Source of the DNA: Ulva prolifera
Lineage: Eukaryota; Chlorophyta; Ulvophyceae; Ulvales; Ulvaceae
NCBI GenBank assembly: GCA_023078555.1
Contig: CM041201.1
Coordinates: forward strand, 3,479,713-3,543,712
DNA length: 64,000 bases
Direction: 5' to 3'
Under the pieces are notes generated by a model. It did no database searches, was not told the origin of the DNA, and saw only the letters and a program-made list of their open reading frames with translations. Each line of letters opens with the position of its first letter. Position 1 is the first letter of the stretch. The position numbers were made by a program, and so were the translations under genes. Below, piece after piece: positions 5,521-61,773 of this stretch.

Positions 5521-8500
5521 CATACGGTACTGGTAAGTTGAAGGACAAGCAAGCCGCCCACAGCATAATTTGCTCCAGGCTTCTGGAATAATACTCTCAT
5601 CGCGAGTCAGCCTTTGGCAACTCTATCTGCACATCTGGCCTTATGTTTGCATCTTCTACAGCTAGATCAATGGTGTCTGGCGGACTGTCCCTTTGATCAG
5701 ATTGAATTTCCTGCATGCGGACAACGGCGTGTGTCGTGGAGCCTTGTATCGGGACACTACAAACGCCAGATCTGGGCATGCTGATAATCACGGGTGTCGT
5801 ATGCAGCAAGCATGCCGCAATGCGCATCATGATGGCTCTGTGCACTCTATGCTTGAAGCCAGAGCTGCTACCGCAAAACCAGGCTCCTGGATTGATTCTG
5901 CGCTGTACATCGCTACCTTCGGCCTAGTGTTGCTTGGCTGTTGTGCACACGGCAGTACACGCAGGCTCCACGAGCTGCAGAGACAGTGACAAAGGAAGTG
6001 CCTTGATGGTGCAGACGCAGAGGAATATATCGAACTGCTCTGGCTGCTACATACCTTTGTCGGTCTGATCGAGCGATCATCGTTTCTGTGCAAGCCCTCT
6101 GCCTCACGTCGCTCCTCTTCTACTGCCGCCATCCTTGATGTGATGAAGGCATCCATGAACAGCTGTGTCAGGTGGCCCACAATGCAGGGAATGGTCAGCA
6201 GGCCTTGGGGTCCGAAGGTCTCAACTGGAAGGAACGAAATCACCGAGATGGAGATAGGCAACGTCTTCTGAGAGGACATGATGAGGACTGCCTTGAAGTC
6301 TGCATCACTCAGGCGAAGCAGCTTGCAGCCCACAAAGTTCATGGCCAGGTACACCACATGTATTGCAATGCCCGCAAGAATCAGCAGGCAGATCTGCCCG
6401 AACGGAGTCGATGTGATGTCATCCTGCACACCGGCAAGCCATCTCAGCAAACCACCAGAGGCGCACTGAAACAGGCAGCACGTCAAATGCGTGCAAACGC
6501 TGACTTGCAGCCCTGCACAGCCACATGGGACCCATACAAGCTGGAACACCGTCAACCTGGCGTTTGTTCAAGCGCTCCCCAACAGGAGAGCTTCTAGCAG
6601 ACCAATGCTCTGCCAGACCAAGGACGTACGACATCAGGGGTGAATGGCAGAGCCAAAATGCAGGAATAGCTTCTACTGCCTGCCAGGGCTGGTCCGGTGC
6701 ATTTCAGCACAAAGTATGCGCATGGCACGTGCTCACTGCGCCCCTCGATCTGTGCTGAATTACCACGCATCTCAAGCAGACATTATCAAGCACGGACTGT
6801 TCAACCCATCAAGACGCGCAGCACACCTGTGCCCGGGATATGGACTGCCACAGCACCATGATGAGAGAGCCATTGTTCAGCAGCTTCAGCACTGTTTTGT
6901 GGTTCTTCGTGAATCGCTGAACAGCTGGAATGTTCAGCAGCAGCTTCCCAATGGCCAGTGGTACCAGGATGCCAATGACAAGCTTGATCAGTAGGTCCAC
7001 CGCGTCTAACTTCACATCAGTCGAGCTGGACAGCATGGCCTGGAGGAAGAAGGGTATCGTGGCGATGCCAATGGTGTTGCTGCCGACACAAAGCAGCAAA
7101 GCCAGCGCAGCGTTTCCGTATGCCTGCAAGTGGTTTCTGTCACCATCATGTAGCATTGATGCTCGAGTGAGGTGACACAGAAACGCATCATGTCACATCC
7201 TTCATGTGGCATGAAGACACACAGGAACGAGACAGCAAGCTCATTGCAGCACAGGAAAGCTGCAGGTCCACCTACTTGGTGGGTACATGTGCATGCATGA
7301 TATCTGTGTTCACTCTGCAACAGGCCCGCTTGTCTGGCCGCGAGCAGTGCCAGTGCGACAACCTTGACAAGTGGATAGCTCGAATTCAATTGATGACTGG
7401 ACCACGAATACATAGGGAAGGTGTGCTGTACAGAAAGCGCTGTTCAGCTGCCAGCAATTCGGACGAGTCCAGCAGCTTGTAGTCAAAGTGTTACTATGTC
7501 GATGAACACTGCGGCCCGATGAGAAGCACGTGCAGATCAGAGCAGCAAACAGGGGAACCAGCATCCTGCTGCTGCTGCAACAAAGCAATGCTTGGGTATA
7601 TGGTATGGCCTTTTGTAATGTAAAGGTAAAGCTGACAAGGAGATCGCACCGCTGTCACCAGAGCAATTCCAGACGATAAGGTTGTCGGCACAGAGCAGAA
7701 AATGGCCAGACCGGTGGCGAACGACTCATTCTCAAAAGGAATTTTCAGCATGGCAAAACCCAGCAGCGGAGTCAGGCCTAGAATGGATACTAGACCATAT
7801 ATGAGGCCTGCGGGAGCCTTGAACGCATCAATGGCATCCTGTGTCTTCAGTGTCAATCCAGAAATCAGGAATATTGTACATAGATGGAATGTTGGTATGA
7901 CTCGGTAGTCATTGATCTGCAAGAGCCCTCAAGTCAGAGAGGTGATCACATCAGGGGAAGAAATCGATATTCGGTACAGCCATTGAGCAAGATCTCCAGG
8001 GCCACACCTTCCATGATGAGATGGTGTCTCCCAGCCATGGCCAGGTGAGACCGATCAATAGTGCAAGCAAAAACCCTGCAATCAGCACGTAGCGTATTAA
8101 CAATCGTGGAGTCGTCTTGTGACCTATTCTGCGACGTGATGGCACGCTACTGCTACGCCAATTCGCTTGTGGACCAACATCAATAGGCCAGCCAGACAAA
8201 GACCGCGATGATGACATGGCAGATCATACAATCGACGCATTCAACATGAATTACCTAAAGGTATAAAGTGTTTCAGTAGTTTCTTTTTCCACCATGCCCT
8301 GCATGTCAGATGTGTTCGTGGACATGGCGCCTGGGAATTAGATCATCAGTGACGTACCGTCGTGCGGTCCGGAAGGCGACAGCGACGCACCATGTCTTCA
8401 AATCACTCGTCTGTGGAAAGCATCCCATATCTCGCCCGCCGCTTCCTGGGCACCAAGGCTTGGGCGCATAAGGCGAAGTGTTGGAGCGTGGGTCTAGCGG

Positions 8501-10183: not shown

Positions 10184-12700
10184 TCATGAACCAGCCTTGG
10201 GCATCTCTATCTGCACATCTGTTGTTTTACTTGCATCATTCACAGATACACCACTTGTTCCTGGCAGACTCTCCTCTTGATCAAGTTGATTGACCTGCAA
10301 CGCACGCAGATAAGGCCGTGTGCGCCGGAGCCTGCTGTTGGGACACTGGCAGCTGCAGACCTCAAATTCTGCCACATGCGGGTGCTAAAAACGGCAGAAA
10401 TGCCGCGATCAACATTGACTGGGATTTATGCAGTGCATGCTTGAGGACAGAGATGCTGTGTCACAGGCGCTTGCACCCGCGTACACGCCAGAACCCCATC
10501 ATAGAATAATATAATATGTAATACATGATATCTTATGAACTCAAACGGGTTCTGTGTGCGGCGTCTCCACGCACGACCACGGAGCTGCAGAGACAGTGCT
10601 AGATGAGCCAGTGTGCTTGGGCAGAAGCAGACCAGGCGCAGACGCGGATGCAATGAACGATTTGATGGGCGTGCTACGTACCTTTGTAGGCGGAATGGAG
10701 CAATCCTCATTGCTGTGCAGGCCCTCCGACTCAAGACGCTTCTCTTCTATCGCCGCCATCCTTGATGCGATGAAGGCGTCTATGAACAGCTGCGCCAGGT
10801 GGCCCACAATGCAGGGAATGGTGAGCAGGCCGTGGCGTCCGAAGGTCTCAACCGGGAGGAACGAAATCACTGAGAGGGAAATAGGCAGGGTCTTCTGAGA
10901 GGTCATGATGAGGACTGCCTTGAAGTCTACATCACTCAGGCGAAGCAGCTTGCAGGCCACAAAATTCATGGTCAGGTAAACCACATGCATCGCAATGCCC
11001 GCAAGAATCAAAAGGCAGATTTGTCCGAATGGGGTTGAGGTGATGTCATCCTGCACACCAGCAAGCCATGTCAGCAACCCACGCCGTGAGAGGCTGAAAT
11101 AGCGGCACTCCAGGTGCGAGAACGACATCGCAGCCTCACAAAGGCGCGCCAAAGTGAATAAGCAAGAACGGCATGCACAAAACGGCAAGCATTTTGGCAT
11201 TTCTCCTGAGAGGACAGCTGCTCCACCACACAATGGTCTGCGCATTCAACGACCTGCAAGGCTAGCAACACGACAGGGCCAAATTACTGGAGTTTGCTGC
11301 CTATGCTGCCAGGGATCATGTACAATGCAATTCAGTACGCATCCTACACACTGCATGCGCTCCCTGCCCCCCAGGCTGCATAAGGCAGGGTCCGTACTGG
11401 AACATGGCACATCTGAAAGTCAAAATTGTTCAGCTGGGACCAGGTCCGATGCAGCCAGATCCGATGCAAGAAGGCATGCAGCACACCTGTGCACGAGATA
11501 TGGACTGCCACAGCACCATGATGAGAGAGCCATTGCTCAGCAGCATCAGCGTTGTTTTGTGGTTCTTCGTGAATCGCTGCACAGCTGGAATGTTCTGCAG
11601 CAGCTTTCCAATGGCTAGGGGTACAAGGATGCCCATCACGAGCTCGATGAGTAGGGCGACTGCATCTAGTTTCACATCAGTCGAGCTGGACAGCATGGTC
11701 TTGAGGAAGAAAGGTACCGTGGCGATGCCAATCGTGTTGCTGCCAACACAAAGCAGCAACGCCAGCGCTGCATTTCCGTAAGCCTGCAAGTGGTTTCTGT
11801 CACCATCATGCAGTATTGACGTGCTCGTGAGGAGACGCATAAAATGAAAGGCATCAAGACAGACAGGGACGGGACATCATGCGCATTTCTGACAAACTGC
11901 ATGTGCTGCACTAACTAGCTGCACTGACAAGCCAGTTGGTGTCAATTCATGCATGCATAAAATTTCACGATCGGCACTCTTCAACAGACCTGCTTGGTTT
12001 GGTCATGAGCAGTCAGAACAGCGTGCCTGCGACATGATCTACAAGTAAGGCGCTCAAACACAGACGGAACCTGGACCACCAGTACTCCGAGAAGCTTTAT
12101 GCACCATGTCTCTGGACCAAGCACGGTCACAGCTGCCAATGACCTCAAAGCAACGCAATACATGTGTATGCTGCATCAGTAAACAGGGCGAATGGCATCC
12201 TGCTGCTGGTCAACTCGCAAAAGGAAGAGGCCTGGGTGCCTGTTCAGAAAAAGGGGAAAACTGGAGGGGATACGCACCGCAACCACAAGAGCAGCTCCAG
12301 ATGATAGAGTAGTTGGCACGGAGCAGAAAATGGCCAGACCGGTGGCGAATGCTTTGTTCTCAAAAGGAATTCTCAGCATGGCGAAACCCAGCAGTGGAGT
12401 GAGGCCTAGAATGGACACTAGGCCATATGTGAGGCCTGTGGGAGCCTTGAACGCATCGATGGCATCCTGTGTCTTCAGTGTCAAGCCAGAAATCAGGAAA
12501 ATTGTACATAGATGGAATGTTGGTATGACTCGGTAACCATTGATCTGCACCGGCCCCACATCAGAGATGACAGCACATCAGACAATGGAATCGACTCCCC
12601 CGTACTGTTGGAATACTGTTTTCGCAAGATCTCAAATGGCACACCTTCCAGGATGATATTGTGTCTCCCGGCCATGGCCAGGTAACACCAATCAATAACG
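10184..12700 (-). CDS. BASS4: BASS4-like cotransporter, copy B (5' exon damaged)
   Basis: Paralogue of copy A with the same exon pattern: 12544-12278, 11783-11487, 11107 or 11093-10682, and 10294-10184 (stop). These exons keep the family blocks (FLISGLTLKTQDA, VPTTLSSG, AYGNAALALLL, SSTDVKL, SQKTLPISLSVISFLP) and a homologous acidic tail ending MPKAGS. Two lesions are visible. First, the region matching exon 1 has only its 3' part intact (GFLLALLIGVTWPWPGDTIS); the ATG equivalent is followed by TGG TCG TCA TGA, and more stops occur up to an in-frame TGA just before that intact part. Second, the exon 4 acceptor homologous to copy A is one base out of frame; an AG 14 bases upstream (start 11107) restores the frame at the cost of extra residues. 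Either a new 5' exon has been recruited (a TGTAG acceptor precedes the intact part) or the copy is becoming a pseudogene. Confidence 0.7.
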
Positions 12701-18711: not shown

Positions 18712-18859
18712 CGGTCAGCACATGCACAAACCGGCACTTCATGCACAATGCCATATAAACATATCAAAACATGAGAGAGGGGCCTGACCGAGCCATGCAC
18801 AGCGCATAGGGAGCAGTTTTGTGGCAATGCATGGGCTACGATGCCCTAGCAGGCGAGCA
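18712..18859 (+). repeat. 148-bp exact repeat, copy 2, abutting the gap
   Basis: Exact copy of 16825-16972 that ends on the last base before the N run. Most likely an assembly effect: a contig end that carries the same sequence twice, or a real repeat that broke the assembly. Confidence 0.95.
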
Positions 18860-18959
18860 NNNNNNNNNNNNNNNNNNNNNNNNNNNNNNNNNNNNNNNNN
18901 NNNNNNNNNNNNNNNNNNNNNNNNNNNNNNNNNNNNNNNNNNNNNNNNNNNNNNNNNNN
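18860..18959. other. Scaffold gap, 100 N
   Basis: Exactly 100 N, the usual placeholder for a gap of unknown size. It removes the 5' end of the calcium uniporter gene. Confidence 0.99.
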
Positions 18960-18960
18960 C

Positions 18961-20233
18961 ACCTCTGGTTTTGGAATTGACGATGGAGTGATTGGCAATG
19001 TGACGGATCGCCTTGACAGCATTGCAGAAAGAAAGTATGACAGCTTACGGATGCACAGACCGCGACGTTTTTGCGTCACCACTGAACGCGAAGTGCATGA
19101 GCCAAAGAAGGCAGTGTCAGCTGCAAGCACAGTCCTGCGACAGATTGCTGTGCGCAAACTGTGCGCACATTTAGAAGAGAAATCGCGTACACGGCTAACA
19201 ATGCCCGTCGATGAAGTGCTGGCATTGACTCAGGAGATGGTGAACGTCAACGAAGCAGATTCGATTGACCTCCTGCGAGCTCTCCAAACTAGCGGAACCA
19301 TCTTGCAGCACGGACGACAAGTGTATTTGAGGCCACAGGAAGTGGCTGAACTTATACTGCAGGCAATTCCTGACACAGAGGCAGAAGCTCAGGTGCGGCA
19401 ACCCCGCCGGTTGTCTCTTCACACGTCCGGGTGAAGTACATGACGTTGTGGGCATGCGTGAATACTGGCTTCTCATGAGGGCTCGATCCGTGTTATGAAC
19501 GACAAATTAATGCTTGATGTCAATGCCATTGCAGAAAAGGTGTCAAGAGATCGAGAACGAATTGCAACCGCTGCAGCAAGAATTTGAACGAAAAATCCAG
19601 GGCAGAGCCAGACTGCGTAGTGCATTACTTGCATACACAGGACTGGGGCTGCTCGTCGCACAGTTCGCCTTCTTTGTCAGGTGCTTGGAGCTTTCTCTAT
19701 CTTAGATGTTTCCAAGGCAATGTCCGCTGCATGCTGACGTTGCGGTCCATGGCTTCAGGATTGTGTACTGGGATTTGTCTTGGGATGTAGTGGAGCCTCT
19801 GACGTTCTTCAATTCACAGCTGATGGTATGATTTTGACTGTGATATGTCTTTGGATACAGCTGCGGGAGCACTGCCCTCGCCCATCCCCATTTAAAGGTT
19901 TTCATGAATCAAGACGGCAACATCACTCCTGCATTTTATGCCGTTTGGCAACACTTTCCTCGTCGCAAACATCAAACCACACGCTGTTGCAGTAGCAGGT
20001 GCATCAGTACATCATTCAGAAATGGCCGCCCATGCATGCAGGCCATACTAGCGTATGCATACTTCCTAGTGTACCGGCATGACTTCACGGCCGAGACCCA
20101 TTACAAGGCTGTGATCAACAAGGAAACATCCAAGCTCATACAACAGCACCGATTTGACTATGAGCGGTACCATGCCCTGCTACGAGACCTCGAGCGCTGG
20201 AAGCGTTTCGCAAAGACCATTGCAACCAGATGA
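18961..20233 (+). CDS. MCU: Mitochondrial calcium uniporter, 5' partial
   Basis: Pore subunit of the inner-membrane calcium uniporter. Exons: gap-18961 to 19392, 19535-19680, 19759-19825, 20042-20233 (TGA); phases 0, 2, 0 close the frame. Seen: the N-terminal matrix domain ends with GRQVYLRPQEVAELILQAIP, as in plant MCU; a coiled coil follows (ENELQPLQQEFERKI); the first membrane helix is LLAYTGLGLLVAQFAFF; the selectivity loop reads YWDLSWDVVEPLTFF, matching W-D-x-x-E-P; the second helix is AILAYAYFLVYR; a C-terminal coiled coil ends KTIATR. The Asp and Glu of the filter are present, so the pore should conduct. The mitochondrial targeting peptide and start codon lie in the gap. A TGTAA, the green-algal poly(A) signal, occurs at 20433-20437. 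No EMRE-like or MICU gene is seen nearby. Confidence 0.93.
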
Positions 20234-46439: not shown

Positions 46440-47980
46440 AACCTGGCAGGGACGATTAGCAGAACAATTTGACGGTGTCTGTCGACGCTGTTGTTGTGAA
46501 GACTGGCTAAGAACGTGCAGGCGATGTCGCCTTTGTGCACCAGTCTACGCCGTGGGAATGGCAGAGCGACAATTCTTGTGGAGGCACACGTCTAGTGTGC
46601 GGTGATCTTTGTTGGGCCGCTTCGGCCTGCTCCACCGCGCCGCTGTCTGTAGGACGGTTTGTCGCCAAGGTTTTCAGATACGCAACACCGGTGAACTCGG
46701 CGAATGAAATCTGGCGGCGATACGTATATGGCCGCCGTGGCTTCAGCTAATGACCACGTGCGCGTGATCAGCTACTGTTCGTCGTGTGCGGTGTTGATAC
46801 ATTGCAACATGGTACTTTGCTTTGGTGTCAGTGCTTTCAGATTGCTATGGTATGGCTTCTCACGACTGCTGGACGGATGCATGGATGTGAGACGCGTGCC
46901 AAGCGCAGGCCCAAGCAAGCAGCACGTTACTCGTGATGTTTCTTGTTGTTGCTGTGACTATACTGCAACCGTCCGACAGTTTATGACTTTGAGTTCTCCT
47001 CCTGGTTTCTGTGGCACTGCGTTCATGCCGATAGCTGCACAATGTGGCACTAACTGCGTGTGTTGTCACACAACCGGTGCGTCTCCGCGCAGAGCTAGAC
47101 ACCCACGATCGGCGTGCGATGAAGCAAGTTGAACAATTGGTTGCTTTGCCGTTACCTTCTATGGTTCTGTGCTCCGATTCGAGTTAAGGTTGCTATGCTC
47201 AGCTGAGGCGTACTGCTCCAACGACGCCCATGCGTCGTTTTCCTCGAGACAAGCATCGGTGACACTTCGCGATAGCAACGTCTTTGCTCTGCCCACTTGT
47301 CCTGTGTAGAACGATGGATTCTGTCAAACAGTGCTCAATCGGTCAGGCCATGATCTTGCGTCCCCGGTAATACGGCACGCGCGACAGCATCTTGCCACGC
47401 ATGTTGAGGTAGCAGTCGTGCACCTATGATGCTGTCTACGTGGCACCCACTCAAGGAGTTAGTCCGCCTCCGCGCAAAACGTTTTGGACATGGAATTGCT
47501 GGTACTTTCCTAACAGTTTCATTGACTGTGTTCACAAAACGACCTGCAGGTCCTTCAGTCAAAAAAGCATTCACGAGTCGCTTCGTTTAAGCAATCGAGG
47601 GTCCGCTACATCAGCTCTGTCAGAACCATGCCATGAATCTGACGTAGCATTGTGTCTTCCCCCGAGCGTGTCGTCCCCCGGACTGCACGGAACATCTCAC
47701 TGGGGGTGCTAGCATGTCAGGGATCACAGCAGCCATGAAAGCCTTGCGTCTGTCTTGACTAAACAGTCATGGCGAGAGGATCACTGTAGCTGTGGAGGAA
47801 GCCACCTTCAGCCAAGCCATGAGCAGGGTGGGGTGGCAAGGCCATGCTGCAGAGGGGCAACACCACTCGTTTTGCAACGTGTCCACGCACCTGCGCATCG
47901 TGTCACACCCCAGACCGTATCTAACTTGCTCAATGTATCACCGGATCAGTTTAAGAAACCGTTCGAGCGCGTAATCGATG
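46440..47980. other. Stretch without a supported gene
   Basis: Several short frames on both strands (for example minus 47574-47335, basic, 79 codons) but no motif and no convincing splice chain. Confidence 0.4.
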
Positions 47981-47982
47981 GA

Positions 47983-48898
47983 TCAGTGACGTGTGGAAGG
48001 AACTCCAGATCCTGCAGTTTGAGAGCTTTGTTGACGAGTGGGGCTCGTGTTGAACTTGAAACGTTTCTTCCAGCGGCAGATCCAGATATGTGCAATAGCA
48101 TGATTGCACATGTGCCTTGCTGACACAACATCCGTGACAGTGGGTCAGCGGATATGGCAAGCTAGTGAGCCCCACCTTCCGCTTGTTGCGCTTGCCTAGC
48201 GATGCGCTGACCGACCATTTCTGGACATGGCTCGTCTCCAGGCCATCGTCAGTCATACAGTCTGGCAGCGGCAACTTCATGTACACTAGCACCCCGATAG
48301 CAAGCATCCGCTTCAGCGGGTCGACATGCTCTGAAGGGATCCCCAGGTCTTGTTGCCGGACTCGCCGACCCATGCGGCGCATAAGAGGCAGGACCTGCAA
48401 GGCGTTCACCTAGCTGCAGGAGCGCTGCCCCCTCAACACATCACAAGCGCTGCCAAGAGATGCAGGCCAGCCACAGCAGACACAGGATGCTGTGCATCAG
48501 CTGGCACGATTGCCCCCGGTTGCCCCGTCAGCCACACAGCCGTGTAGGTGGTATAGGATTGCAGCTGTGGCGAGGCGTTGAAAACGTGGGTGGTTGTCGA
48601 GGAAGGTGTCAGTAAGGTCGGGCAGTACCTCAGTGATGTGCTCACATATGCGAGCGCTGAGTTGCTGGACCCGGGCACAAGCCAGGACCCGAGTAGGGAA
48701 GAGGCTTAGGTTGCTGTACGCACGGATCTTGTTCTGCAGCACATCTCGGAGCAGGACCAGCTGCCCTGTCAGCGCCTGCAGGGCCTCCCCGATGCGCACC
48801 ACCTGAGACGCCCCGGAGCCATAGCTATACTGGTGCACGTTCTGCGCCAGTGCTTCATGCAAGGCGACCGCCAGGATCTGAAGGTTTGTGAAGCCTGC
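47983..48898 (-). CDS. Unrecognised helical protein, 5' partial
   Basis: Three minus-strand exons: 48898-48536, 48394-48176, 48066-47983 (TGA), all phase 0. The product is rich in amphipathic helices (LQILAVALHEALAQNVHQYS; VVRIGEALQALTGQLVLLRD; VQQLSARICEHITEVLPDL), then a basic stretch with VLPLMRRMGRRVRQQDLG and KRMLAIGVLVYMKLPLP, and a Lys/Arg-rich, Ser/Thr-rich tail (KRNKRK/KRFKF) that could be a nuclear signal. I do not recognise the family and found no catalytic motif. The 5' end lies above 48898 and was not found; a possible ATG region is at about 49040. The last exon rests on phase alone. Confidence 0.5.
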
Positions 48899-49326
48899 CT
48901 GTGGAAGACAGCCGCAGTCAGCCGCTGCTGCAACATGTGCTTTCTCGCTAGGTGCTGTGTGTTGTGCATTGTGGGCTCAAGATTTGAAATCCATCCCGCG
49001 GATTGTGTGGCAGTTTCAGCACCGGGGAAGAGGATCCTGTGAATTCATGTACAGCTCACGCGGGCTCGGCGCACCCTGTATGGTGGCGCACCCAGGTGAG
49101 CCAACTCCTCCGTAGCCGCGGAGCTCAGCTGAGGCTGTCGCCTGCCCCACATAGGCTTGCTTCTATGGTGTACGCATGTTTGTGTGGCTACTACATCGCC
49201 ATGTGGTGCTTTGCAGTGTGCACTTCAGCGCGACGGCAATGGTGGGGCTCATGCCTTCGGCTGGACCACAACCCTTCAGGCGCAGATCGATGGCGCCGTG
49301 TGGAGGCAATGGCAACCGACACACAT

Positions 49327-52300
49327 TCAGGGCAGCACCTGGACAAACTCCTTCTGCGCCTGCGCTATAGCTGCTGCAGCACTGGCCTGATGCTCTTCCG
49401 GCAGCTCTGAGCGAATCTCATTGCGCCGGTGCTCCTGCTGCTGAGTCTCCTGCTGCTGAATCCAAGCCCTGGTCTCTTGGAAGCGGCTAGCAAGAGACGC
49501 ATCGCTGCCACACAGCCCACCAGCTTCCTGGAGCAGGGCTACCACGGCAACATCAGCCACCATCTTGGCATTGTCCAGGGGAGTGCTGCCGTATGCGTCG
49601 ACTGGATTCACATCCGCTGTACATGACTTGCAGATCACAGACACCACCTCAATCGATCCACATGTTGCGGCGACATGCAGCGCCGTGCGCCCCTGTGGAT
49701 CCTGCATGATTGCTGGCTCATCCACCGTCTGCGCTGGCAGGCTCCCGTCATAGGCAGGCAAGTATTTGTGATCTTGCCTGCCTCAGCAGGTGTCAGGCTC
49801 ATAACAGCCCCCTGCTCTGCTGATGCTTCATGAACGCGAGACCACATTGGCGTGTGCAGCCGGCTGGCACGCACATCGAGAGAGAGCGGCTAAGGCATTT
49901 CCGCACCATGGACCACATGTCTATGTTGTGTTCGGAAAGCATCTGGAAGAAATTGGCATCGTTCTGTGCCGCCGCCTTGCAGAGGTCTTCTGCGATGTCG
50001 GGCTGCACCGGGGCACCTGCCGACTGCAGCATGGATGCAGCTCTGCGGTGTCCAGCACAAAGGGCGTCCCACAGCGGCGTGTGCGCCATGTCGTCAATCG
50101 GCCCGAGCTGTGTTTGTGGGTGCTCGAGCAGACACTTCAGCACCTTCATGCTCGAGTTCGCCGCTGCCAGGTGCAAGGGGGTGCGGTTGTCATAGTCTGC
50201 ACAATTGGGGTCCACTCCTGCTGACAGCAGTATCTCCACTCGCTGCACATCGTCGTCTGCAGCTGCCTGTATCAGCCTACTGGTGTACTGCTTGGCTGGG
50301 AGCTTGTGGTGATCGCATCTCAGAAGAGCTGCTAGGTAATGCACGACCTCAGCATGTCCCTCTCGAATGGCATCGTCCATCGGTGTGCCACAGTACCGAT
50401 CTTTTACTGTGATGCTTGCGTTGAATCGCTCAATGAGGATCCTCACGACACTCTTGTGGCCCATGCTAGCAGCAATGTGCAGAGCGGTCCTGTCATCGTA
50501 ATCGCTTTCATCCACCTGCCACGTCATGTTGTTTTCGTAAACTCGAGGATTCAGAACAGACATGCAAGGGTTGGTACAAGCTCAAGGGCACGACGAGTGC
50601 CTTCCTGGTGTAAACCTGTGACATTTGTATGCGAGGAGTAAGGCGCAACGCACAAACAAGAAGTCAAACTTGAGCTAGATTCAGCCTGGTGAAAGACAAT
50701 GGCTTGCCACCCCACAGACATGCAGAAAAGCAGATACACATTGGCGGTGGCAACATACCTCCACATGCTCTGATTCCAGCAGGAGCTGCACCAGGCGCAT
50801 ATCTTTTGCTGCCACTGCAGCAAGGAGTTTCACAACGTTTTGTTCCTTGCGCCGCCTCACAGCTTCGTCAACCTTGCGCCAGACAGCTCCTTCATTTTGC
50901 TGGGTTGTTGAGTCAAGTGTGGTCTCCGAGGTCATGCTGAACTTGTCAGACTTGCTGCTGTCCACAGAGTCAACCAATGCATCAACCATGGCTGTTTCAT
51001 CGTCCACATATGTCGCTGCCACCTGTTTATAATCGCTGTACGCCAAAGCAAAAACTGCCACCCTTGTCTTGCCAGCACATGCTGCGTGTATATGACGGAG
51101 ACGGAAAAGGAATGCCAGCTCACCAATGGTGTCTCCCTTCTTTTTGGTCTCTCTTACCTGTATGCATGCAGGCATCACACAGTGATGACTGGATGCTGTA
51201 GACTGTAGCAAGCTCCATGCATCAAGTTCAGGGTCAGCTGGCCACCGTTTCGCTGCCATCCATTTCTTGTTGCAGGATGGTCACAGAACCAGAGGCTATG
51301 ATGTGGAGATCATTGCAGATGTCGTTGGTATGGAAAAGATATTCATCGCTAGCAAAGCTTGCTTCTCGAAGTAGTGCTGCCAGGCTGGCAGTGAATCCTG
51401 ACGTGCAGTTCACGAAGAGTGGATTAGCCTTCAGCAACGGCAGGCTCATCTGCATTGCAACTTCTATGCGCAGATTTGTCGACAGCAAGCTGTTTATGTG
51501 CTCCGACGAATAAGCATCCCTCTGAAGACCATCTTCGAAGCAGCTGACAATGTCCACTGCCAGATCTCTGGAGAAACTGTGCTTCTGCAGGAAACTTTGC
51601 ACCTTGGACATCTGCTCCCGCATGCCAACGAGCGCTTCATCGCTGGCCATGACCATATTCGATATCTCACCAACCACATATGCGTAGACCGTCAAAGTTG
51701 TCAGCATGCTCCAAATCGTGAAGATGATTTCTCCTATGTTCTTGGGTGTTGCATCCCCCACAAGGCTGGCAGTTGACAGAGTTGAGGCTGCCCAGTAGCA
51801 GCTGAAGATGTACTGCTTGATGATAGGCACTGAATCGATCCATAGCTGTGCTTCTCCAAGGCCAGAGTAGTAGTAGATCCATGATCCAGAGGGGTCATCA
51901 ATCTGTGAATGAGACAAGTCCCGGCCAACAGTGCCAATGTACCACCAAATGCACCCATAAATGTGTGTCAATCCCAAAATCAGGGGCATGAGCCGCAGAA
52001 TACCCATTGACACACTAGTCCGTGCGACAGATTTACCCAGCTCTCGATACAACCGCAGCATGCGATAAATGCGTAGCATCTTTGGCAGCCGCAACCAGCT
52101 CACATAACCATGATTGGCATTCCCATTCCAGCCCACAAGATTGCTGAACGGCATCGCAGCGATCAAGTCCAGAAAGAAACTGCTGTTGATGTAATGGACA
52201 CGGATGGCTTTCAAATTGTAAACAAGGATCCCATTATCATCGTAGAAAGCACGAGACACATTGACAAACATGTCTGCTATGAGCAGCGCCTCCAAGATCT

Positions 52301-53015
52301 GATTCCCGATATCATACAGCGGACCTGCAGCAGGGGATCTGCAGTTTGACAATTGCCAATGATTACTGCTGAAAGAGATATGTTGTGGTATGCACATGCA
52401 TGCCAGTGAGCTGACACCTCGTCATCCATCATGTTGACCATTGGCGGCGTATATGGCCTGGGGCCAAAGGCTTGTGAGAAAAATTCGTTTTTGTGGGATT
52501 TTCGGTCAATCGATCTCCCCGCATCTCAGAGAAGACCAACGATGGGGCCCATGCAACTCCTGTGACACTCTGTCAAATAATTGTAAATGGACGTACCTAG
52601 TCTTACTGCTAAACTGAACGCTATGCTGACTGGTACTTCCCTGCAAACATTTGGACTTCATCGCAGAGCAGGTGGCAACAGTGCAATGTGTATGCATGCT
52701 GGACATTTATCCACAATAGAGGCTTGGTCTGCCCTGCCAACCGCCATCGATATCGCATGATTCTTGGCCGTCGCACCAGAAGAAGAACAAAGCCACCAAA
52801 CGAATCAGATTATCCCAGAGCCGTATCGCACAGGAATCTGGATGGCACACTCGCCAGCTCGCGTCAGGTGGCAGCTTTGCCTGAACACGATTGTTCGCTA
52901 TGGTCTTGCAGATAGCGATGAAATCATCCAGCCCAACTGTGCGCATGGGATCTTTCAAACATTCCATCTTTATCCCCTGCACCAAGTGGAACCGTTTATA
53001 GCGATCCTGCACCAT
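49327..53015 (-). CDS. Shaker-like channel with CNBD and ankyrin repeats (channel 1)
   Basis: Relative of plant AKT/KAT/SKOR potassium channels. Exons (minus): 53015-52777, 52640-52597, 52324-51246, 51157-50759, 50515-49907, 49728-49327; 923 residues, phases 2, 1, 0, 0, 0. Seen: S1 across exons 1-2 (LIRLVALFFFW/EVPVSIAF), S2 (LEALLIADMFVNV), S3 (SFFLDLIAAMPF), S4 with regular basic residues (LRLPKMLRIYRMLRLYREL), S5, the pore loop, S6, a C-linker, a cyclic-nucleotide-binding fold (GDTIGELAFLFRL) and at least five ankyrin repeats (DYDDRTALHIAASMG; DYDNRTPLHLAAANS; DPQGRTALHVAATCG), with a Gln-rich end. Odd: the pore filter is STASLVGD (278-285), not TxGYGD, with one extra residue. The start at 53015 is the first ATG of the open frame. 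It may conduct little potassium, or serve another ion or as a subunit. Confidence 0.9.
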
Positions 53016-53603
53016 GCTGGCACCTGGCTCACAATAGGCTGCAGTCTGTGGAGAAAGACGGCACAGTCTTAAGACGAGACAATCAAAATTGATTTGTTCA
53101 GGCTTATAGCACGAGTATGCCTTTGTTGCAGGCCCCTGCAGCTATCAATGGTATGTGAGGCACTCGAAACGTGCCGCACTGTATCAACCGAATCGCTCAA
53201 TGTAGTGTAAGGTACTACCTGATACCTCATCATAGATCTACCATAAGTGTTGTAGACTCGAGAGCATCGCAGCGTTGCAGACTACGGCTAGTCTGCATAG
53301 TTGCACGCTAAAACCGATTTTGTGAACCTGGACGCTGAAGAGGAAACTGACAGCATCAATGCAGCAATTGAGGAGACTTCGTACTCCTGTACATATAAAA
53401 GTCTGCCTGGTGGAGAGCTGGCGCCCATCGTGGCTGCATGTGGCTATTCCATAGAGTACACACGTTCAACAACACACTCTAACCAGTTCCTCTCGAGCTA
53501 GGTGAACTGCGGGAGATTCTATGTTCTTGCCTTTTCAACTAAGAGAGACACATGCTATCAGACATCACACCAGACCGACAAGGGCAGCAGCCCATCTCTG
53601 ACA

Positions 53604-56600
53604 TCAAATAGACTGCAATCGTGTCAGACTAAATCAGTTCATGGTTGGATGCTGACACACTTGCGATGCGGTCTCTGCGGCGCACATACCTCCAGCAAGT
53701 CAAATGAAGCTTTGGTGAGGGGGAATTCAGCCTGCAGCAGCCTCACCAGGCCTTCTGCTGCAGCAAACGACACACTATGATTCCTGTTACCATCGATGTA
53801 GGCAAAGGTGCGCCGTGCTATCTCATGGGGCGGTAACTTCGATCCTCGTTTCCAACACCAAAGCTCCCATGCTGACATTTGCAACACCACCTGCATCAGT
53901 TTGGCACACAATAAAGATGTTGATGAGCACAATTGCCTGGCAATGCTGGTCCACCAGATGAGCCCATTCACCCAAGCCGCAGCTGCGGTGCAACACCTTC
54001 AGGCCGTCGTTGCCATGTACTGCAATGACTTCGTCAAGGGCAGCCACCTCTTCAAGGTCGGCTTCTGCTTCTGCTTGCAAATCTGCTTGCATAGTGACAG
54101 CGTCATCGAGTTCAGAAATGTCTCCAGATGCCAAACTGCCTTCTGCACACAACGAGAGTCCACTGAACATTGAGCTTTGCTGGCGACCCACCACTGTCAG
54201 CATTCTTGCCAGTTTGGAAAAACTTGATTGTCTGAGTTGACCGTCAAGAACAACATTAGCGACATGGACAGCGCACCTGCGGCAATCATTCTGGAACGAG
54301 ACCGTTGCAGGCCTGTCATTGCTGCCCATGTATCTTCTATGCCCATCCACTTGACAAAGACCTTCATGAACCTGTCAGGGTTGATTTCTTGGGCAGCATC
54401 TGCCTCACTGACAAGGGCATGCCATAATTGTTCTAAATCACCACGAACAAAAGCCTGGCGAATGATGTGTCCATCTGTTGCGATACTGATGGCATTGATG
54501 TTTTGTAAGTCTAGCGCTGAAAACGTCTCTGACATCCACATGTACAATTTCTGAAGTTGCATCATGATTTCCGTCATGTTGGCACCTTGTACAATGCCAG
54601 TACCTGGGGTGACAGCTTCCAAGAGCTCATCAGAGCAGACACTGTCTGTCTCAAACGTGTTTACTTGCTTTGCTGGCCGAAGGACTCCTGACACACTGTG
54701 CCTCGCCTTCTGACCTATAGCTGCAGAGTTGCCCGTTTGCGCAAACTTCGATGCTTTAACCTTGGCTAATGGGTGCTCAGTCTGAACCCCCACAGCTTCT
54801 AGAACGCGATCTCGAAAGTGTGCCCAAGTTAGAATTCTTGTCAAGGATAGCTGCTTGAATCCTACAGAAACAGGAAGCTATTCAATCATTGACCTTACAA
54901 GATCTGTGCTATGGAACACTGTGCAGGCTCGAAATATGGAGCAAGCAGTATGCCGGTGTGTGATCGAAGTCTGTGGTGTACCAGGGGCTCCAAACAGTAA
55001 AGCCTCGAAGTCCACTGCAGTGACATCTTTTTCATCGAATGCCAGACCCAGCAGGTCAAAAATCTTGCGCAGATGGTCAATTTGTGGCTCGAAAACACAC
55101 AAGATAGGACTAGCCAGTTCGGCCAAATCGTGCATCGTGTCCTCAACGGTATGAGCTCTCATCATCACTCTCATAGCGGTCTTCAATATATGGGCATGTG
55201 AGTATGCAGCATTTTCATCATGTTGATGAACTGTTGATGACTGCTTAATGAGTGTCCTGGACGCATCTTAGTTGGTTTTGTATGGCACCTGTATATGTAC
55301 ACTGAGCAAAGCGTTCCAAGCTGTACTAAAGAAGCAGCGCAACAATGCCAAGCAAGCAGAAGGCCTCGTCGAAGTGCAGCATAGCTGAAGCACCGACATG
55401 CACCCAGCTTGATGATCATGCGTGCTTGTGTCTTTTGAACTGCACGTCGGATACCGAACGCAGCGTGCCATGCCCAGGCATACAATTGTCATAGCTGCAA
55501 TGCCTCGCTCAGGCATGTCATTGCAAACGCTGCAGTGGCTCAAGAGTCGTCTACTGACACATATGCATACTACATCGCACCGGACAGATTTGTTTCTGGG
55601 GCAAAGGAGCATCATCAGCGCTCGCACAGCTGTCAGTAAGTTTTGTGTATCTTCCAGGTGAGCCAGAAACTCCTCAACCCCCTCTCGAATCGCAGGCAGA
55701 GCCTATACAGCACAGGTCTGCGGCTTGAACCACATACAATACCCTTACATGGCTATCATAGGAAAAAGACTCCTGACCGTGCAAGCGATGTTGGTTCCAC
55801 ATAGTGGAAGTGGCACGGCACACGCAATGCATGGTGCCGAATGCCCCATTGATGCTGTCTCAGGCATTTCCAGTAAGGCAACAATTGAGAAGTACTAAGA
55901 TGCAGTCTCACAAGACCGACAAACAATTCAACCTGCAAAGGTCTTGTGCCCGATCTGGTGCAACATGACCGCAGCCATGTGCTCACAAGAGATTTCTGCA
56001 CCAAGGCATGTATAATGTCCTGGAATCAACACACCTTGATGTTGTAATTCAGGGACTCACGGCGGATTTGTAGAGCAGCCTCTTGTGTCTGTGACATTGT
56101 GGATCCCATCGCAAGGAGCTCTGTGTGTCGGTGTGTGAGCGTCCGGCACAAGGACTGCCTCAAGTTCGTCAGCGAGGGTGTAGCCTTTGAAGAAAGGATC
56201 TCTTGCAGTCTCAGGCGCTGCTCAGGTTTGTGGCACTGCCCTGCAGTCACAGCACCTCTGAGACTGCATCGCTTCCTGAACCCCCAGAGGCCCCCCGCAA
56301 GGGTGCCAGGTCAAGCTAGGTTGCAGCCTCCAAGCGATTGTTCCACACACCATTCGCACATATTGACAGGTCCGGACAGCTTGATGACTTGCTTCATCAG
56401 AAGCCGCCGGCACAGGTATTGACAGCAGACATAATCACTGACGTACCACGCATGGCTTCACACGAATGTATGTGTATAACCAGGACCCAGCTTTTGTGAC
56501 AGTCCGGTGATAAGACCGCTCTACCACTGGACCCTTGTACGGCGCGACGTGCAAGGGTCCAGTGGTAGAGCGGTCTTATCACTGGACTGTCACAATGTAT

Positions 56601-59600
56601 TCTACGATCATGGAGGCACTGTCATGGCCTGATCTCCACGTCATGAACCAAAGTAGAAAACAGAACACGAACATGCATCAGCCTGGCCAGATCTGTGTTT
56701 CATCATGCACTCGCAACAATCGCACCTGCATTTGAGACGAGAAGGACAATGCATGAAACATGCTGTTCACGGACAGCATGATCTAGTGGTGTCATCCCCC
56801 ATACATCCTTAGAATTCACGTCTGTTGCATGTTCAGTGATCAAGAAGTACAGCGCCATGATCTTCCCCGCCCTCGCTGCAACATGAAGTGCTGTCATCTG
56901 CATCCACACGCACATGATGACCGAGGCAAGCGACACTACAAGACACAGCGCTTCTGGACATCCCTAGCTCATGCACACAAGTCTTACGCTGACTTGCATC
57001 CGATCTCTCTCAGCGGACACAACAGTGCAGCCAGAGGGCACAGAGGGCACCTTGTCATAGTTGTGTACTGCAAAACGAGCACCCGCAGCTGACAGGAGCG
57101 CCAAGTGAGCCGTATTGTCGGAGCGTGCCGCTTCCAATAGAGTGTGGTGCTCAAGGCCATAAGATGCTTTCGCCCCATGGCTTGCTAGTACTCGCACAAT
57201 CATGTGGTCCCCAGTTTTGATGGCGTCTTCAATCGGCGTCCCACCCCATCTGCATGCTAGCGCTGCCTATTTGTACGACAGCTCCAAACTGCAGGAAGTG
57301 GGACCAGTCTGAAAAAGACCGTCACCTGTCACCCTGGTTCACATCGGCGCCCAGGTGCAGGACGCTCTCCACAGCTGAAAGCTTGCCAGCAGCACACAGC
57401 ATGTGCAACACGCCGCGCCCATCGTAATCACACGCATTGACGTCCGCTCCAGCCCGATCACATGCCAGCTGGAGCAGTGCAGGGTCAGTCTCTGCAAGTT
57501 CCTTGACCAAAGAGAATGTGCCTGCCCTTAAGGCTGCGCCTTTGTCAACAAGCAGCTTGGCTGTTTTCATGTCCTTCAGCCTCAGGGCTTCTAGCAGTGG
57601 CGTGCTGCCCCAGCGATCCACGACGTCCACCAAAGCCCCCCTCTCGAGAAGAATGCGGACCACTTCCATCTGCCCCTCTGCTACAGCTAGATGCAGCGTT
57701 GTCCGCCCATCGTAATCTCCTGCAAACACTGCGCTTGTACACAACAAGTGCGCCTTCAAGTCAAAGCGCCACATTCCAGCATGTGGGATGTGGTGAAGGC
57801 TGAGAATTGCTGTCGGGCTGGTGCCAGGTGAAAGAGCAAGCGCTTGAAATGGTGACAGCTCATGCAATGTTGAACTGCAGAAGCATCTTGCACTGCTCAC
57901 CAATTAGTGCGTTCACTGGGCAAAGTGATCAAAGTAGCTGCCTAGCATGCATTGGTCACGACAAGAACAGGAGGACTCAACACCAGCATCAATCGGCAGG
58001 CCGCGGGCCAGCAGGTGTTCCACAGCATCAATCTGTCCACTTGACGCTGCGTATTTGAGTTCTGTGAGACCTGCCTCCACATATCTTCGGAGCTCTTGCT
58101 GCACCACTGTGGCACAGGTCAGCAATGTGGAGTCATGGCCGGGTAATCGAATGCGCTTTCAACCATCGACCTTGCGCCGTAACTTTGACCGCCAAGGGGT
58201 GCAAGGTGTATGCATGTGCCATCACAAGAACACGCTCGCCCATGATGCCATCCTGCCGCACTCCACACACTTGCGTGAGGCCGGCGGTGACACAGAGACC
58301 ACACACACCACAGACAGAAGATTGCAACTGAACAACTTGCCGCTAACAAATTACTGGTGCCTTCTTAACGAAGACGGAATGTCCAGCAGGGCGCGGGGCT
58401 GCACACTCAGTTGTTTTTCAGTTCACCGGCCCTGGAGTGGTTGAATTCCAGGATCGACTGCCATATACCGGAGTGCAAATACATCAGCGTTCTTGTACCG
58501 AGACCGTCTCAGCCAATCGCCCCTAAAGGTCATCTGGACCAAATGACCCCAGACCAGGCGGCCGAGCCAGCACATCGACACATCACTGTAGACCGCAATT
58601 GTGCGGGGTAGGGACGAACAAGTTGAGTAGTGCCAAACAGCGTTGATGACAATCCCCCAGCACAACCAGCCAGAGCATGGGAACTCACGCTGCGAGAGGA
58701 TCACAAATGTGCAGCCAGAGTCCACCACTGCTGAAGCGCTGTATACAGAAATATGCCAGACTTCGGACCGCGGTCTCCTGTTTGAAATCCGAACAGGAAA
58801 GCGCAGTCCAGTGTACCGCGGAAAGGCTGATGGTCTTTCATACCTGGATAGCCCCTCGCAACTGCGTGGATCCCTCTGCATCTGCTGGCTGATCGCCAGT
58901 GGTGGTGGTTCCTATGTCATCTCCATTGCGACCAAGATCAAATTGCATCAACATGTTCGTCAATATGACCTCATGCTGCTCTGGATAGTGGGAGATGACA
59001 TCATCATAGCTAGCCTTAGTCGCAACAAGCATGGCGCTGTTCTCATTAGCTCGTGCCCTTACAGAACTGGGCTCTGGTACCCCTGCAGAACTCCACGTTC
59101 AGAGCACTGTGAAAGACCCTGGGTGCTTCAATTGCCTGAGGTCACATGGTGTACGGCCAGAAACAGCTCGATGAATGCTATGAACTTGGTTGCACATCGC
59201 CAGACCAGCGGCTTCGAGCGAATTCGATCAGTAGGTCATGCACGCCATGCCTTCAGCACATGAAGCGTCTGCGGGCTGAAGTCTGGCCGTGAAGATGGTG
59301 GGAGCACACCAAGGAAAAATGACACTGCCCCGGTGAGACAGGGTCCAGTTCCTTCCCCGGACAGTAACTCAACGAGATCCCCTTTGCGGTCTGTGACAAT
59401 GAGAGTTCCTTTCGTCGCAAACCCAAGTTCTCTAGACATATCGCCGTGCTTGATGATCAACTCGTCGGGCATCAACGAGACCTCGGTAAGAGTCATCATG
59501 AACCGCTGCAGGAACTGTGAATTGCAGTGCTTGAAAAGGTGCATACTCCTTTGAATGGTTCTCTCACACTCTACTTGTGCCACACGAGCTTGCAGAGACC

Positions 59601-61773
59601 TGGGCAGGCTCTGCACGACGTTCGAATCATACAGGCTGGTGTGTCACTGCCAACAGTCAACATGAGGCAGGTGACACGCACGCGCAACACATGGGTCGAG
59701 ATGGAAGATGAGTTTTTCTGCTGGAATAGCAGGTAGTCCTCCATCTTGCTTGTGAGTTCACGGGTCAGACTGCGATCACTGCAGTACTGGTGGAGCCCTG
59801 CCAAGACGTCACGCGTTGCCTCCAGCTCTGGATCCTTCTTCACCAGGTAGTGAAACAGCGTGCCAAGGATGTATGCATCGATAACGACTTTCACGTTCTG
59901 GGCAACGATCGACAGCACCATCTCCTCATCTCGCTGAGGGACAGCAGCCTCATACCCAACACTTGTCAGCACACTGAACCCCTTGAACAGCATCACCTGT
60001 GAGCAAGCACAAGTATCGGGTCGACTGACTCCAGTGTAAGGGGTGCAACAGGATCCAGAATGCTGGACACAAAAAGTCTGAGTGTGAGATTGACTGCCAC
60101 ACCGACTGCGAAAGCAAGTGAATCTTCTGAAATGAGATGCTTGATGATGGAGGGCATACCACATAGTCGTGAAACCCTGGAGATGTCAACCAATGAAATT
60201 TTGCATCTGTTTGTTGTACCCAAGCGTCCACCCAATTAAGCTCAAAGTGGGATCTATCAAAACCATAGAAGGCAGATAGCCCATAGTACATGCAGCCCAG
60301 CCAGTGTCCCTACACCTGAGAGCCCACTGAAGACGCACGACGTTGCATCCGACTACCACACGAGATCTGGCGCTGGCTGACGGTCAGATCTGGTGACCAC
60401 CTATGCCACAACTAGCTTCGGGCTGACTGATCGTACCGTCAAGTAGATGATATATGCGAACTTGAAGAAAGCTATCCAGCGGACATCTGTGGCCACGTCC
60501 TCTTGACGTGCAGAAAAGTAGGCCATCACATCGAGAATACGGTATGCTCTAGCAAGAGTGGCAATAGACACGAAAGTCGCCCCCATTGGATGGATACTTG
60601 ATAGCCACAAAGGCACCATCAGCAGCAGACGCAGTGGAATGCCGATGACCAGCTGGTTCCTCAGTGCTGGGCCAAAAACAAATCCCTTGCCATAACTTTC
60701 AGCGTTAGATTGAACAGGCTTGGGACTGCTGGCATTTGATTCCATTGACGAAGCCGAAACAATACGGTCTGCGGACGAATCTGCTAGGCCCATGTCAAGA
60801 ACAGCCGCCTGCGAAACCCGGAACAGGAGGTCTGCTAGGAAAACCAGGTCTAACCAAAGCTCAGTGCCCGCCCATAACTGATGCTTTGAGATGGCATGTT
60901 CGACATCGCTGCGATCATAGAGGTCAAGCCACTGTTTCTTGCTGTGAATGAATTCATGAGCCACAAGGGAGACGGGAAGCAGAATCGAGTCAGCAACATT
61001 GACGCATGTCATCATCAGAGACCAGGCTGTAGCCACGGAGCTCCCTGGACGGGCACAGCGAACAAGCACTGCAGTGAATTTTGTTGTGAGGGCAGAGGGC
61101 ACCCCTTGGAATCTCACATGCCGCCGTTTCAGGCGTTCCCATGTCTTGGTGCTTCGACTGCGAATGGAGGAGCGCCTGGGTGTGCGACTAGCACGAGACC
61201 CTCTGTGCATGCCAGCTACTGCATGAATCAAATCTAGGGGTGTTCGCCATAACTCGACTTGTCTCCGCTTGGTAGCCTGCCGAGTACACCATACAATTGA
61301 GCTGTCTGAGGCACCGACATCGCTGGAATTCCTCTTCATCTTTCGGACTGCCAGTCGGGCGGTATGAGCAGCAGCCGCGAAACGCAATGACTTGGGCCTG
61401 TAAATATGCAACACGGGCTGTCCACCCTTTTACAAATGCATTCACTGCCAACAAAGACCACCAATGACGGTGAGCTCTCGGTAGCCATGCTTTCACACAC
61501 ACCCACACACGTGCAAGTTCTGGCTAGAAACGTTGAAGGGCGGCGATATTCGGCAATGCGAACTGGATGCGGCAGACTTGAAATACAAAGGTGGTACCTG
61601 AAGTCAACATCTACATCCTTGGACCATCCATCGTTTTTCCCCGGTGGATGATTCGGCAACGGTGCACCGCTACCAGCAGCATCATGTACCAATGTCACAT
61701 CCGATGTCGGTGGCGCCGGAAGCGTGCTCAACATGATAGTTTCATTTGTAGTGAAGCCGGAGGTGTCCGACAT
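53604..61773 (-). CDS. Shaker-like channel with CNBD, ankyrin repeats and long C-terminal extension (channel 2)
   Basis: Tandem paralogue of channel 1. Exons (minus): 61773-61598, 61397-60437, 60309-60160, 59996-59682, 59610-59310, 59082-58844, 58098-57984, 57719-57326, 57249-57051, 56897-56726, 56240-56035, 55702-55581, then (less sure) 55169-54982, 54861-54242, 54179-53955, 53890-53690, 53612-53604. The frame closes at 1530 residues. Seen: S1 VNVADSILLPVSLVAHEF, S4-S5 near LARAYRILDVMAYFS, pore loop SVLTSVGYEAAVP, CNBD (MPDELIIKHGD; VPEPSSVRARANENS), ankyrin repeats (DYDGRTTLHLAVAEG; NQGDRWGGTPIEDA; MTALHVAARAGK). The filter TSVGYEA (440-446) has Glu where potassium channels have Gly. The extension has helices, a hydrophobic segment (AAGALSMSLMLFLTV) and one EF-hand-like loop (DGNRNHSVSF). 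Exons 13-17 could be a separate gene, but phases fit one model. Confidence 0.82.
56494..56595. repeat. Near-perfect 48-bp-arm palindrome with tRNA-like sequence, in channel 2 intron 10
   Basis: Bases 56494-56541 pair with 56548-56595, with two mismatches and a 6-base loop. Each arm reads out GGGTCCAGTGGTAGAGCGGT and then CTTATCAC; the TGGTAGAGCGG word resembles a tRNA D-arm/A box. No T-arm follows, so it is not a working tRNA gene. Confidence 0.9.

What the first reader, a model, noticed from the sequence alone, without database searches (positions are those of the whole stretch)
49327..61773. Two tandem Shaker-like channels whose pore filters both depart from GYG
Seen: channel 1 reads STASLVGD with one extra residue, and channel 2 reads TSVGYEA, at the position where plant AKT/KAT channels have TTGYGD. 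All other parts (S1-S6, CNBD, ankyrin repeats) look intact, and frames stay open over more than 900 and 1500 residues. Known: the GYG carbonyls set potassium selectivity. Inference: the pair may form a heteromer with altered selectivity, or serve as non-conducting regulatory subunits, a little-described channel type.
Basis: partly seen in the sequence, partly recalled or inferred. Interest (0 to 1): 0.75.

Follow-up and report, generated by a model that had tools for sequence, protein, structure and literature searches.

The report
Two-repeat algal channel lacking GYG filters
In what appears to be a green alga related to sea lettuce (Ulva), one very long gene encodes two potassium-channel-like halves in a single protein, and neither half has the usual potassium-selecting signature; no relative that could be checked has it in those halves either, so this is probably a real channel with a different ion preference rather than a sequencing error.

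Summary
A diverged copy of the whole gene lies just outside the window. Two Ulvmu1 gene models (Ulva mutabilis, 2609 and 2262 aa) join the same halves. Among relatives covering the filter, none has GYG: 0 of 44 half-1 rows (29 GYE, 9 AYE; an acid in 42) and 0 of 15 half-2 rows (13 LVG, 2 LVD; one extra residue). Other channels in the same genome read TVGYGD or TTGYGD. Two-repeat CNBD channels are published in dinoflagellates and oomycetes with TVGYG-like filters; this is an algal variant with both filters altered. Most likely two chains form a 2+2 pseudo-tetramer that is a non-K+-selective, possibly Ca2+-permeable, cation channel. Architecture and conservation rest on sequence; no transcript was seen, and conduction and selectivity are inference. 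A non-conducting regulator remains possible.

The parts
47951..61773 (-). Whole gene, copy A: 24 exons, about 2654 aa, two-repeat CNBD-ankyrin channel (start ATG, exon 1 and the end of the last exon are the least certain)
   Evidence: relative P0002 (2609 aa)
60437..61773 (-). Exons 1-2: N-terminus and half-1 S1-S4 and start of S5; S4 stretch poor in net charge (3 K/R, 3 D/E)
59682..60309 (-). Exons 3-4: half-1 rest of S5, P-loop and S6
59946..59966 (-). Half-1 filter TSVGYEA (GYE instead of GYG)
   Evidence: 0 of 44 rows GYG
58844..59610 (-). Exons 5-6: half-1 CNBD; cassette G-E replaced by G-A/T
56726..58098 (-). Exons 7-10: ankyrin array 1
52777..56240 (-). Exons 11-17: linker joining the two halves and, at its end, most of half-2 S1
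   Evidence: third-position excess; no Pfam match
51246..52640 (-). Exons 18-19: after S1, half-2 S2-S6, C-linker, start of CNBD; charge-rich S4
51753..51773 (-). Half-2 filter TASLVGD (one extra residue, no GYG)
   Evidence: 0 of 15 rows GYG
50759..51157 (-). Exon 20: second part of half-2 CNBD, cassette GEL and an Arg kept
49339..50515 (-). Exons 21-22: ankyrin array 2
47951..48898 (-).
   Evidence: aligned with P0002

Best explanation
The locus is one gene for a two-repeat (12-TM) channel of the CNBD superfamily, related in sequence to plant SKOR/GORK-type channels. It has ankyrin arrays after each repeat and non-GYG filters in both repeats. Two such proteins most likely form a pseudo-tetrameric pore with two half-1 and two half-2 P-loops. 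The pore has no fourfold GYG ring; it is lined by TxLGYE and TASLVG segments, so it should not be K+-selective. The conserved acid in half 1 suggests a non-selective or Ca2+-permeable cation pathway. Half 2 carries the charged S4 and the more intact CNBD, so it is the likelier sensor of voltage or ligand. Half 1 has a charge-poor S4 and has lost the CNBD cassette Glu, so it is the likelier pore specialist. Shown by sequence: domain order, conservation of both odd filters, asymmetry of S4 and CNBD, and (without transcripts) a single gene. Inferred: assembly, conduction, selectivity, gating.
For: One gene: all 22 introns shared with copy B have the same phase (junctions were chosen with agreement in mind, so this is partly by construction). 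P0002 and P0003 were not used in building the model. P0002 has no gap in a 12-residue window at 21 of the 22 junctions 2-23 and one gap at the window's edge at junction 19; junction 1 lies in a poorly conserved N-terminus and is not supported. Linker exons show third-position excess (54/39/67% differences) like the rest. Filters: acid at the second-Gly position in 42 of 44 half-1 rows; S[TA][AS][SAG]LV[GD] in 15 of 15 half-2 rows. The pore-to-S6 stretches are the most constrained of the regions measured: pN 0.11 and 0.14 against 0.34 over the gene, 71-86% identity in pairs of the four full-length proteins. Homology: half-1 profile to SKOR E 1.3e-26, over S4 to CNBD; half-2 exon to GORK/SKOR E about 6e-24; halves to each other hhalign 96%, from pore to CNBD. 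The same genome has TVGYGD/TTGYGD channels (L003, L004, L007, L046 and two others).
Against: No transcript was seen; P0002 and P0003 are gene models, and P0003 diverges in ankyrin array 2 and stops early. The half-2 filter varies at its polar end (GD, GN, GH, GE, GQ, DA), so no single acid is required there. AlphaFold on the half-2 exon failed (mean pLDDT 42), so there is no structural support for an open pore. Half 1's S1-S3 rest on hydropathy and position only. The linker has no significant Pfam EF-hand.
Confidence: 0.58

Rival explanations
1. It is a non-conducting or strongly modulatory protein: a voltage- and ligand-sensing scaffold, or a subunit that combines with ordinary Shaker-type subunits of the alga and silences or alters them.
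For: Both filters lack GYG; the half-2 filter is one residue longer; the genome also has canonical channels that could be partners; S4 charges and cassette residues are kept in half 2 but not in half 1.
Against: The pore loops and S6 are the most constrained regions measured, and the odd motifs are conserved over 15 and 44 rows; a dead pore would be expected to drift more. The 2+2 content in one chain suits self-assembly.
Confidence: 0.27
2. It is still a K+-preferring channel, with an unusual filter backbone that keeps K+ sites.
For: Half 1 keeps T-x-x-[GA]-Y of the K+ signature in 41 of 44 rows (29 GYE, 9 AYE, 2 GYF, 1 AYD, the last with S for T); nearest solved relatives are SKOR/GORK.
Against: The second Gly is an acid in 42 of 44 half-1 rows; half 2 has no GYG in 15 of 15 rows. 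CNG channels with TIGE-type filters are non-selective (recalled).
Confidence: 0.1
3. Two separate neighbouring genes, each a single-repeat channel, mis-joined in the gene models.
For: Ankyrin exon 10 is followed by an in-frame stop a few codons past its donor in both copies; no transcript was available.
Against: Donor and acceptor with matching phase 1 in both copies, conserved exons 11-13 starting at the acceptor, continuous P0002 and P0003 models.
Confidence: 0.04
4. Pseudogene or sequencing error.
For: None found beyond the odd motifs themselves.
Against: Corresponding non-GYG motifs in copy B, in P0002 and P0003 and in further sequences; pN below pS in all regions measured.
Confidence: 0.01

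Closest known systems
[quoted passage not shown] 2020, PMC7576140; abstract, part 1 of 2 of Results and passages read)
   Same: Two 6TM-CNBD repeats in one polypeptide; low identity between repeats; repeats specialised.
   Different: Published ones are in SAR lineages with TVGYG or close variants. That paper's main text has 0 hits for Ulva, ankyrin and green alga and one for chlorophyt-, in a passage I did not see; its supplements were not read. This one appears green-algal, has ankyrin arrays, and has GYE and LVG filters.
Plant outward rectifiers SKOR/GORK (Shaker family)
   Same: Best sequence matches of both halves in the PDB; 6TM, CNBD and ankyrin order.
   Different: Single repeat per chain with a GYGD filter (recalled; GYG seen in the SKOR alignment); here two repeats and no GYG.
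CNG channels of animals (TIGE-type filter)
   Same: Group-wide loss of GYG with an acid in the filter; for half 2 the PDB match is nearly as good (1.2e-23 against 5.8e-24), for half 1 clearly weaker (7.5e-17 against 1.3e-26).
   Different: The acid sits at a different position (recalled TIGET against TNLGYE); single repeat; no ankyrins (recalled).
CNGK four-repeat channels and two-pore channels (TPC)
   Same: Several 6TM repeats fused in one chain.
   Different: CNGK has four repeats; TPC has two repeats but no CNBD or ankyrins (recalled).

Membership tests
Two-repeat tandem CNBD channel | Two 6TM repeats, each followed by a CNBD, in one polypeptide | tested here: met
   two cNMP_binding stretches each in P0002 and P0003; in copy A the half-1 CNBD is below Pfam's cut-off but covered by the SKOR match; hydropathy. 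Single-chain status rests on gene models, not transcripts
Two-repeat tandem CNBD channel | Filters TVGYG or close variants, as stated for the published members | tested here: not met
   0 of 15 half-2 rows and 0 of 44 half-1 rows with GYG
Shaker/SKOR-GORK-type plant K+ channel | 6TM + CNBD + ankyrin order with sequence similarity | tested here: met
Shaker/SKOR-GORK-type plant K+ channel | GYGD selectivity filter | tested here: not met
Shaker/SKOR-GORK-type plant K+ channel | C-terminal KHA domain (recalled as a feature of the plant Shaker group) | tested here: not met
   No KHA match in P0002 or P0003 against Pfam at E up to 1; copy A's C-terminus was not scanned
CNG (TIGE) channel | TIGE filter | tested here: not met
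   TNLGYE-type and TASLVG-type instead
Cyclic-nucleotide-gated channel | Phosphate-binding cassette Glu and Arg (positions assigned from recalled CNBD knowledge) | tested here: inconclusive
   Half 2 keeps GEL and an invariant Arg in 4 of 4; half 1 has GA/GT in place of GE in 4 of 4; binding not testable
Two-pore channel (TPC) | Two repeats with EF hands between and no CNBD (recalled) | tested here: not met
   CNBDs present; EF-hand only at E 0.21 in one of 2 full-length models scanned and none in copy A's linker
K+-selective channel by function | K+ selectivity | not testable with these tools
   Needs electrophysiology

The most novel reading that the evidence does not exclude
A group of CNBD channels, probably green-algal, in which an acid replaces the second filter glycine (TN[LV][GA]YE), arose independently of animal CNG channels. 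In the Ulva lineage it is fused to a second repeat with a lengthened filter (TASLVG), giving a mixed 2+2 pore with a filter chemistry I found no description of, probably Ca2+-permeable and gated by voltage and ligand through one half only.
Probability: 0.4. Interest if true: 0.82.

Novelty: new variant of a known kind. Interest (0 to 1): 0.62.

Why it matters
The published survey of CNBD channels found departures from TVGY/FG that mark a whole clade only in animal CNG channels among those it analysed, and mentions plant CNGCs, which it left out, as another case. Here a further group with a conserved acid in the filter appears, fused into a chain that would fix a 2+2 pore. If it conducts, it is a natural experiment on how few GYG carbonyls a pore of this fold needs. 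It is also a candidate cation-entry pathway in an Ulva-type alga, testable by expressing one gene.

Tried and rejected
Alternative GYG pore exon: searched in six frames of both copies; five GYG/GFG strings, none by eye in a pore context. Sequence error: rejected by conservation. Viral contigs: 58 and 64 stretches matched a pattern, none confirmed as a relative. Structure prediction of the half-2 exon with 12 sequences failed (mean pLDDT 42.1, pTM 0.24), so no fold search was run. EF-hands in the linker: suggested by eye, not supported by Pfam. The half-2 CNBD profile alone matched only three kinase-A regulatory subunit sequences at E up to 1e-6 (1.3e-11 to 8.4e-10), with no stretch passing on its own; the half-1 CNBD profile A6 was not searched. 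dN/dS was mostly undefined because synonymous sites are saturated; pN, pS and codon positions are reported instead. Literature searches with no paper: (Ulva with CNBD, ankyrin and potassium channel; chlorophyte with CNBD, Chlamydomonas and ankyrin; SKOR with Chlamydomonas, Shaker and ankyrin; GYE with GYG and selectivity filter; Ulva mutabilis with potassium channel). Listings seen but papers not read: searches (7; 4; 10 of 14), and two of the three. Rows dropped from the half-1 count: 27 of 71; 26 have gaps in the filter columns and one (P0053) has letters there but no leading T/S and looks like intron. Two of the 26 (P0032, P0063) show GYE in the part they cover. The 44 counted include the window's own copy twice (A and P0018).
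Full report
WHAT IS THERE. Open frames alone give pieces of at most 395 and 342 residues for the two channels, so the frames are not open over 900 and 1500 residues. The window belongs to an 88.9 Mb assembly, contig C6. Searching that assembly with channel 1 gave 7 matches, the best after itself a 63% identical one about 17 kb away, just outside the window. Searching with two channel-2 exon frames gave one further match each, in the same neighbourhood. Comparison of the window with the next 40 kb showed that the stretch from about 48 to 62 kb recurs at about 65.5 to 78.4 kb. I call these copies A and B.

GENE MODEL. Conserved open frames in A and B were joined at GT-AG sites by a simple splice score and by reading the sequence, requiring open frames, and the two copies were compared junction by junction. 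The result is 24 exons and 2654 residues for A, and 23 exons and 2569 residues for B, whose first exon was not resolved. All 22 shared introns have the same phase; because I looked for agreement when choosing sites, that is partly by construction. The exons between the two channels (11-17) are conserved, in frame, and continuous with ankyrin exon 10 and with half-2 S1.

INDEPENDENT CHECK. A search with residues 1540-2040 of the joined protein returned 5 proteins (only the 7987 candidates sharing most words were scored). Two carry the label jgi/Ulvmu1, which I read from memory as Ulva mutabilis: P0002 (UM001_0218, 2609 aa, 73% over the region) and P0003 (UM001_0223, 2262 aa, 64%). They were not used in building the model. 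They are continuous through the linker. At junctions 2-23, P0002 shows no gap in a 12-residue window at 21 and one gap at the window's edge at junction 19; junction 1, in the variable N-terminus, is not supported. P0003 shows no gap at junctions 2-19 but departs in ankyrin array 2 and ends early. Of 8 regions that all four proteins cover, A is closest to P0002 and B to P0003 in 6; the exceptions are the two short pore stretches, and P0003 is closer to P0002 than to B in the half-1 CNBD. This suggests, without a tree, that the duplication is older than the split of the two species. The window is therefore probably from an alga close to Ulva; its species was not determined.

THE FILTERS. Half 1: TSVGYEA in A, TNLGYEV in B and P0002, TTLGYEV in P0003. 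Half 2: TASLVGD, TAGLVDA, TASLVGH, TAALVGD. A profile search with half 2 gave 11 further proteins (only 7993 candidates scored). With the four above, all 15 rows lack GYG, 13 read LVG and 2 read LVD, and they align without gaps there, one residue longer than canonical. P0008 is 100% identical to A over its matched part and may be the same species. A profile search with the half-1 pore exon gave 67 proteins, mostly without names. Of 71 rows including A, B, P0002 and P0003, 44 cover the filter: GYE 29, AYE 9, GYF 2, KHD 2, AYD 1, SYE 1, GYG 0; A is counted twice there, as A and as P0018. Of the 27 dropped rows, 26 have gaps in the filter and one, P0053, lacks the leading T/S. No GYG or GFG lies, by eye, in a pore context in six frames of either copy. 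Of 35 other loci of the same genome scanned, 6 (L003, L004, L007, L027, L041, L046) show a TVGYGD or TTGYGD filter; the rest were not examined further. That speaks against a general sequence problem.

CONSTRAINT. Between A and B, the pore-to-S6 stretches have the lowest non-synonymous difference of the regions measured (pN 0.11 in half 1, 0.14 in half 2; 0.34 over the gene), synonymous sites being saturated. The linker exons also show third-position excess (54/39/67%).

ASYMMETRY. The half-1 S4 stretch (30 residues) has 3 K/R and 3 D/E in all four proteins; that of half 2 (25 residues) has 5-6 K/R and 0-1 D/E. Half-2 CNBD keeps GEL and an Arg in all four; half 1 has GA or GT in place of GE. 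Reading these as the phosphate-cassette residues rests on recalled knowledge of CNBDs.

HOMOLOGY. Pfam sees the CNBD of half 1 in 4 of 4 members at E up to 1, below its cut-off in copy A, but not the membrane part. A profile of the four half-1 sequences matches SKOR at E 1.3e-26, from S4 to the CNBD; S1-S3 of half 1 rest on hydropathy and position. The half-2 exon matches GORK and SKOR at about 6e-24 and a CNG channel at 1.2e-23. The two halves match each other at 96% probability and 18% identity from pore to CNBD. The other three proteins are distant (21-25%). P0004 and P0005, the latter named Phytophthora infestans, have four CNBD and three Ion_trans stretches each and, by eye, no GYG in a pore context; P0006, from the barnacle Pollicipes, has four CNBD and three Ion_trans stretches, with at least two GYG/GFG filters.

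MECHANISM. Shown by sequence: domain order, conserved non-GYG filters, asymmetry, and a single gene (without transcripts). Inferred: two chains form a four-fold pore with alternating halves; without GYG the pore is not K+-selective; the half-1 acid may favour divalent or mixed cations, by analogy with CNG channels (recalled); half 2 senses voltage or ligand. A silent regulatory role is the main rival. AlphaFold on the half-2 exon failed, so there is no structural evidence.

KNOWN WORK. PMC7576140 (abstract, part 1 of 2 of Results, and passages) reports two-repeat CNBD channels in dinoflagellates and oomycetes and four-repeat CNGK in animals and choanoflagellates. It states that filters of two-repeat tandem channels are TVGYG or close variants, and that metazoan CNG is the only clade exception among the channels analysed. 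Its main text has no hit for Ulva, ankyrin or green alga and one for chlorophyt- that I did not see; its supplements were not read. Ten literature searches were made; no title or abstract start in their listings describes this gene. They cover open-licence papers only, and I read in no paper but that one.

VERDICT. The thing is a new variant of a known kind, with an architecture well supported by sequence and an untested function.

Noticed in passing
window 56494-56595 (intron 10 of the channel gene): A 102-bp near-perfect palindrome (51-nt arms, 94% complementary, no spacer) of a dispersed foldback or MITE-like family: 84 matches counting both strands, with only 40 of 280 first-look candidates scored. 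Copy B has no match to it at E up to 1e-3.
   Followed up: partly
contig C6:3545185-3558119, outside the window: Copy B of the whole channel gene, 49% identical to A over half-1 TM and 65% over half-2 TM, with filters TNLGYEV and TAGLVDA.
   Followed up: yes
P0004 and P0005: Proteins with four CNBD and three Ion_trans stretches each, one named Phytophthora infestans, show by eye no GYG in a pore context; another multi-repeat CNBD group whose filters deserve a look.
   Followed up: partly
window 5827-6567 and 10541-11245, minus strand: Two similar open frames that by eye look like an SLC10A7-type transporter, perhaps a second local duplication (translations only).
   Followed up: no
window about 2280-2922: A short tandem repeat that reads as HSHHDHEVTGKDTP-like units in one frame (translations only).
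   Followed up: no
window, within the frame 18850-19434: A run of unknown bases near the start of this frame, seen as 34 X in the translation.
   Followed up: no
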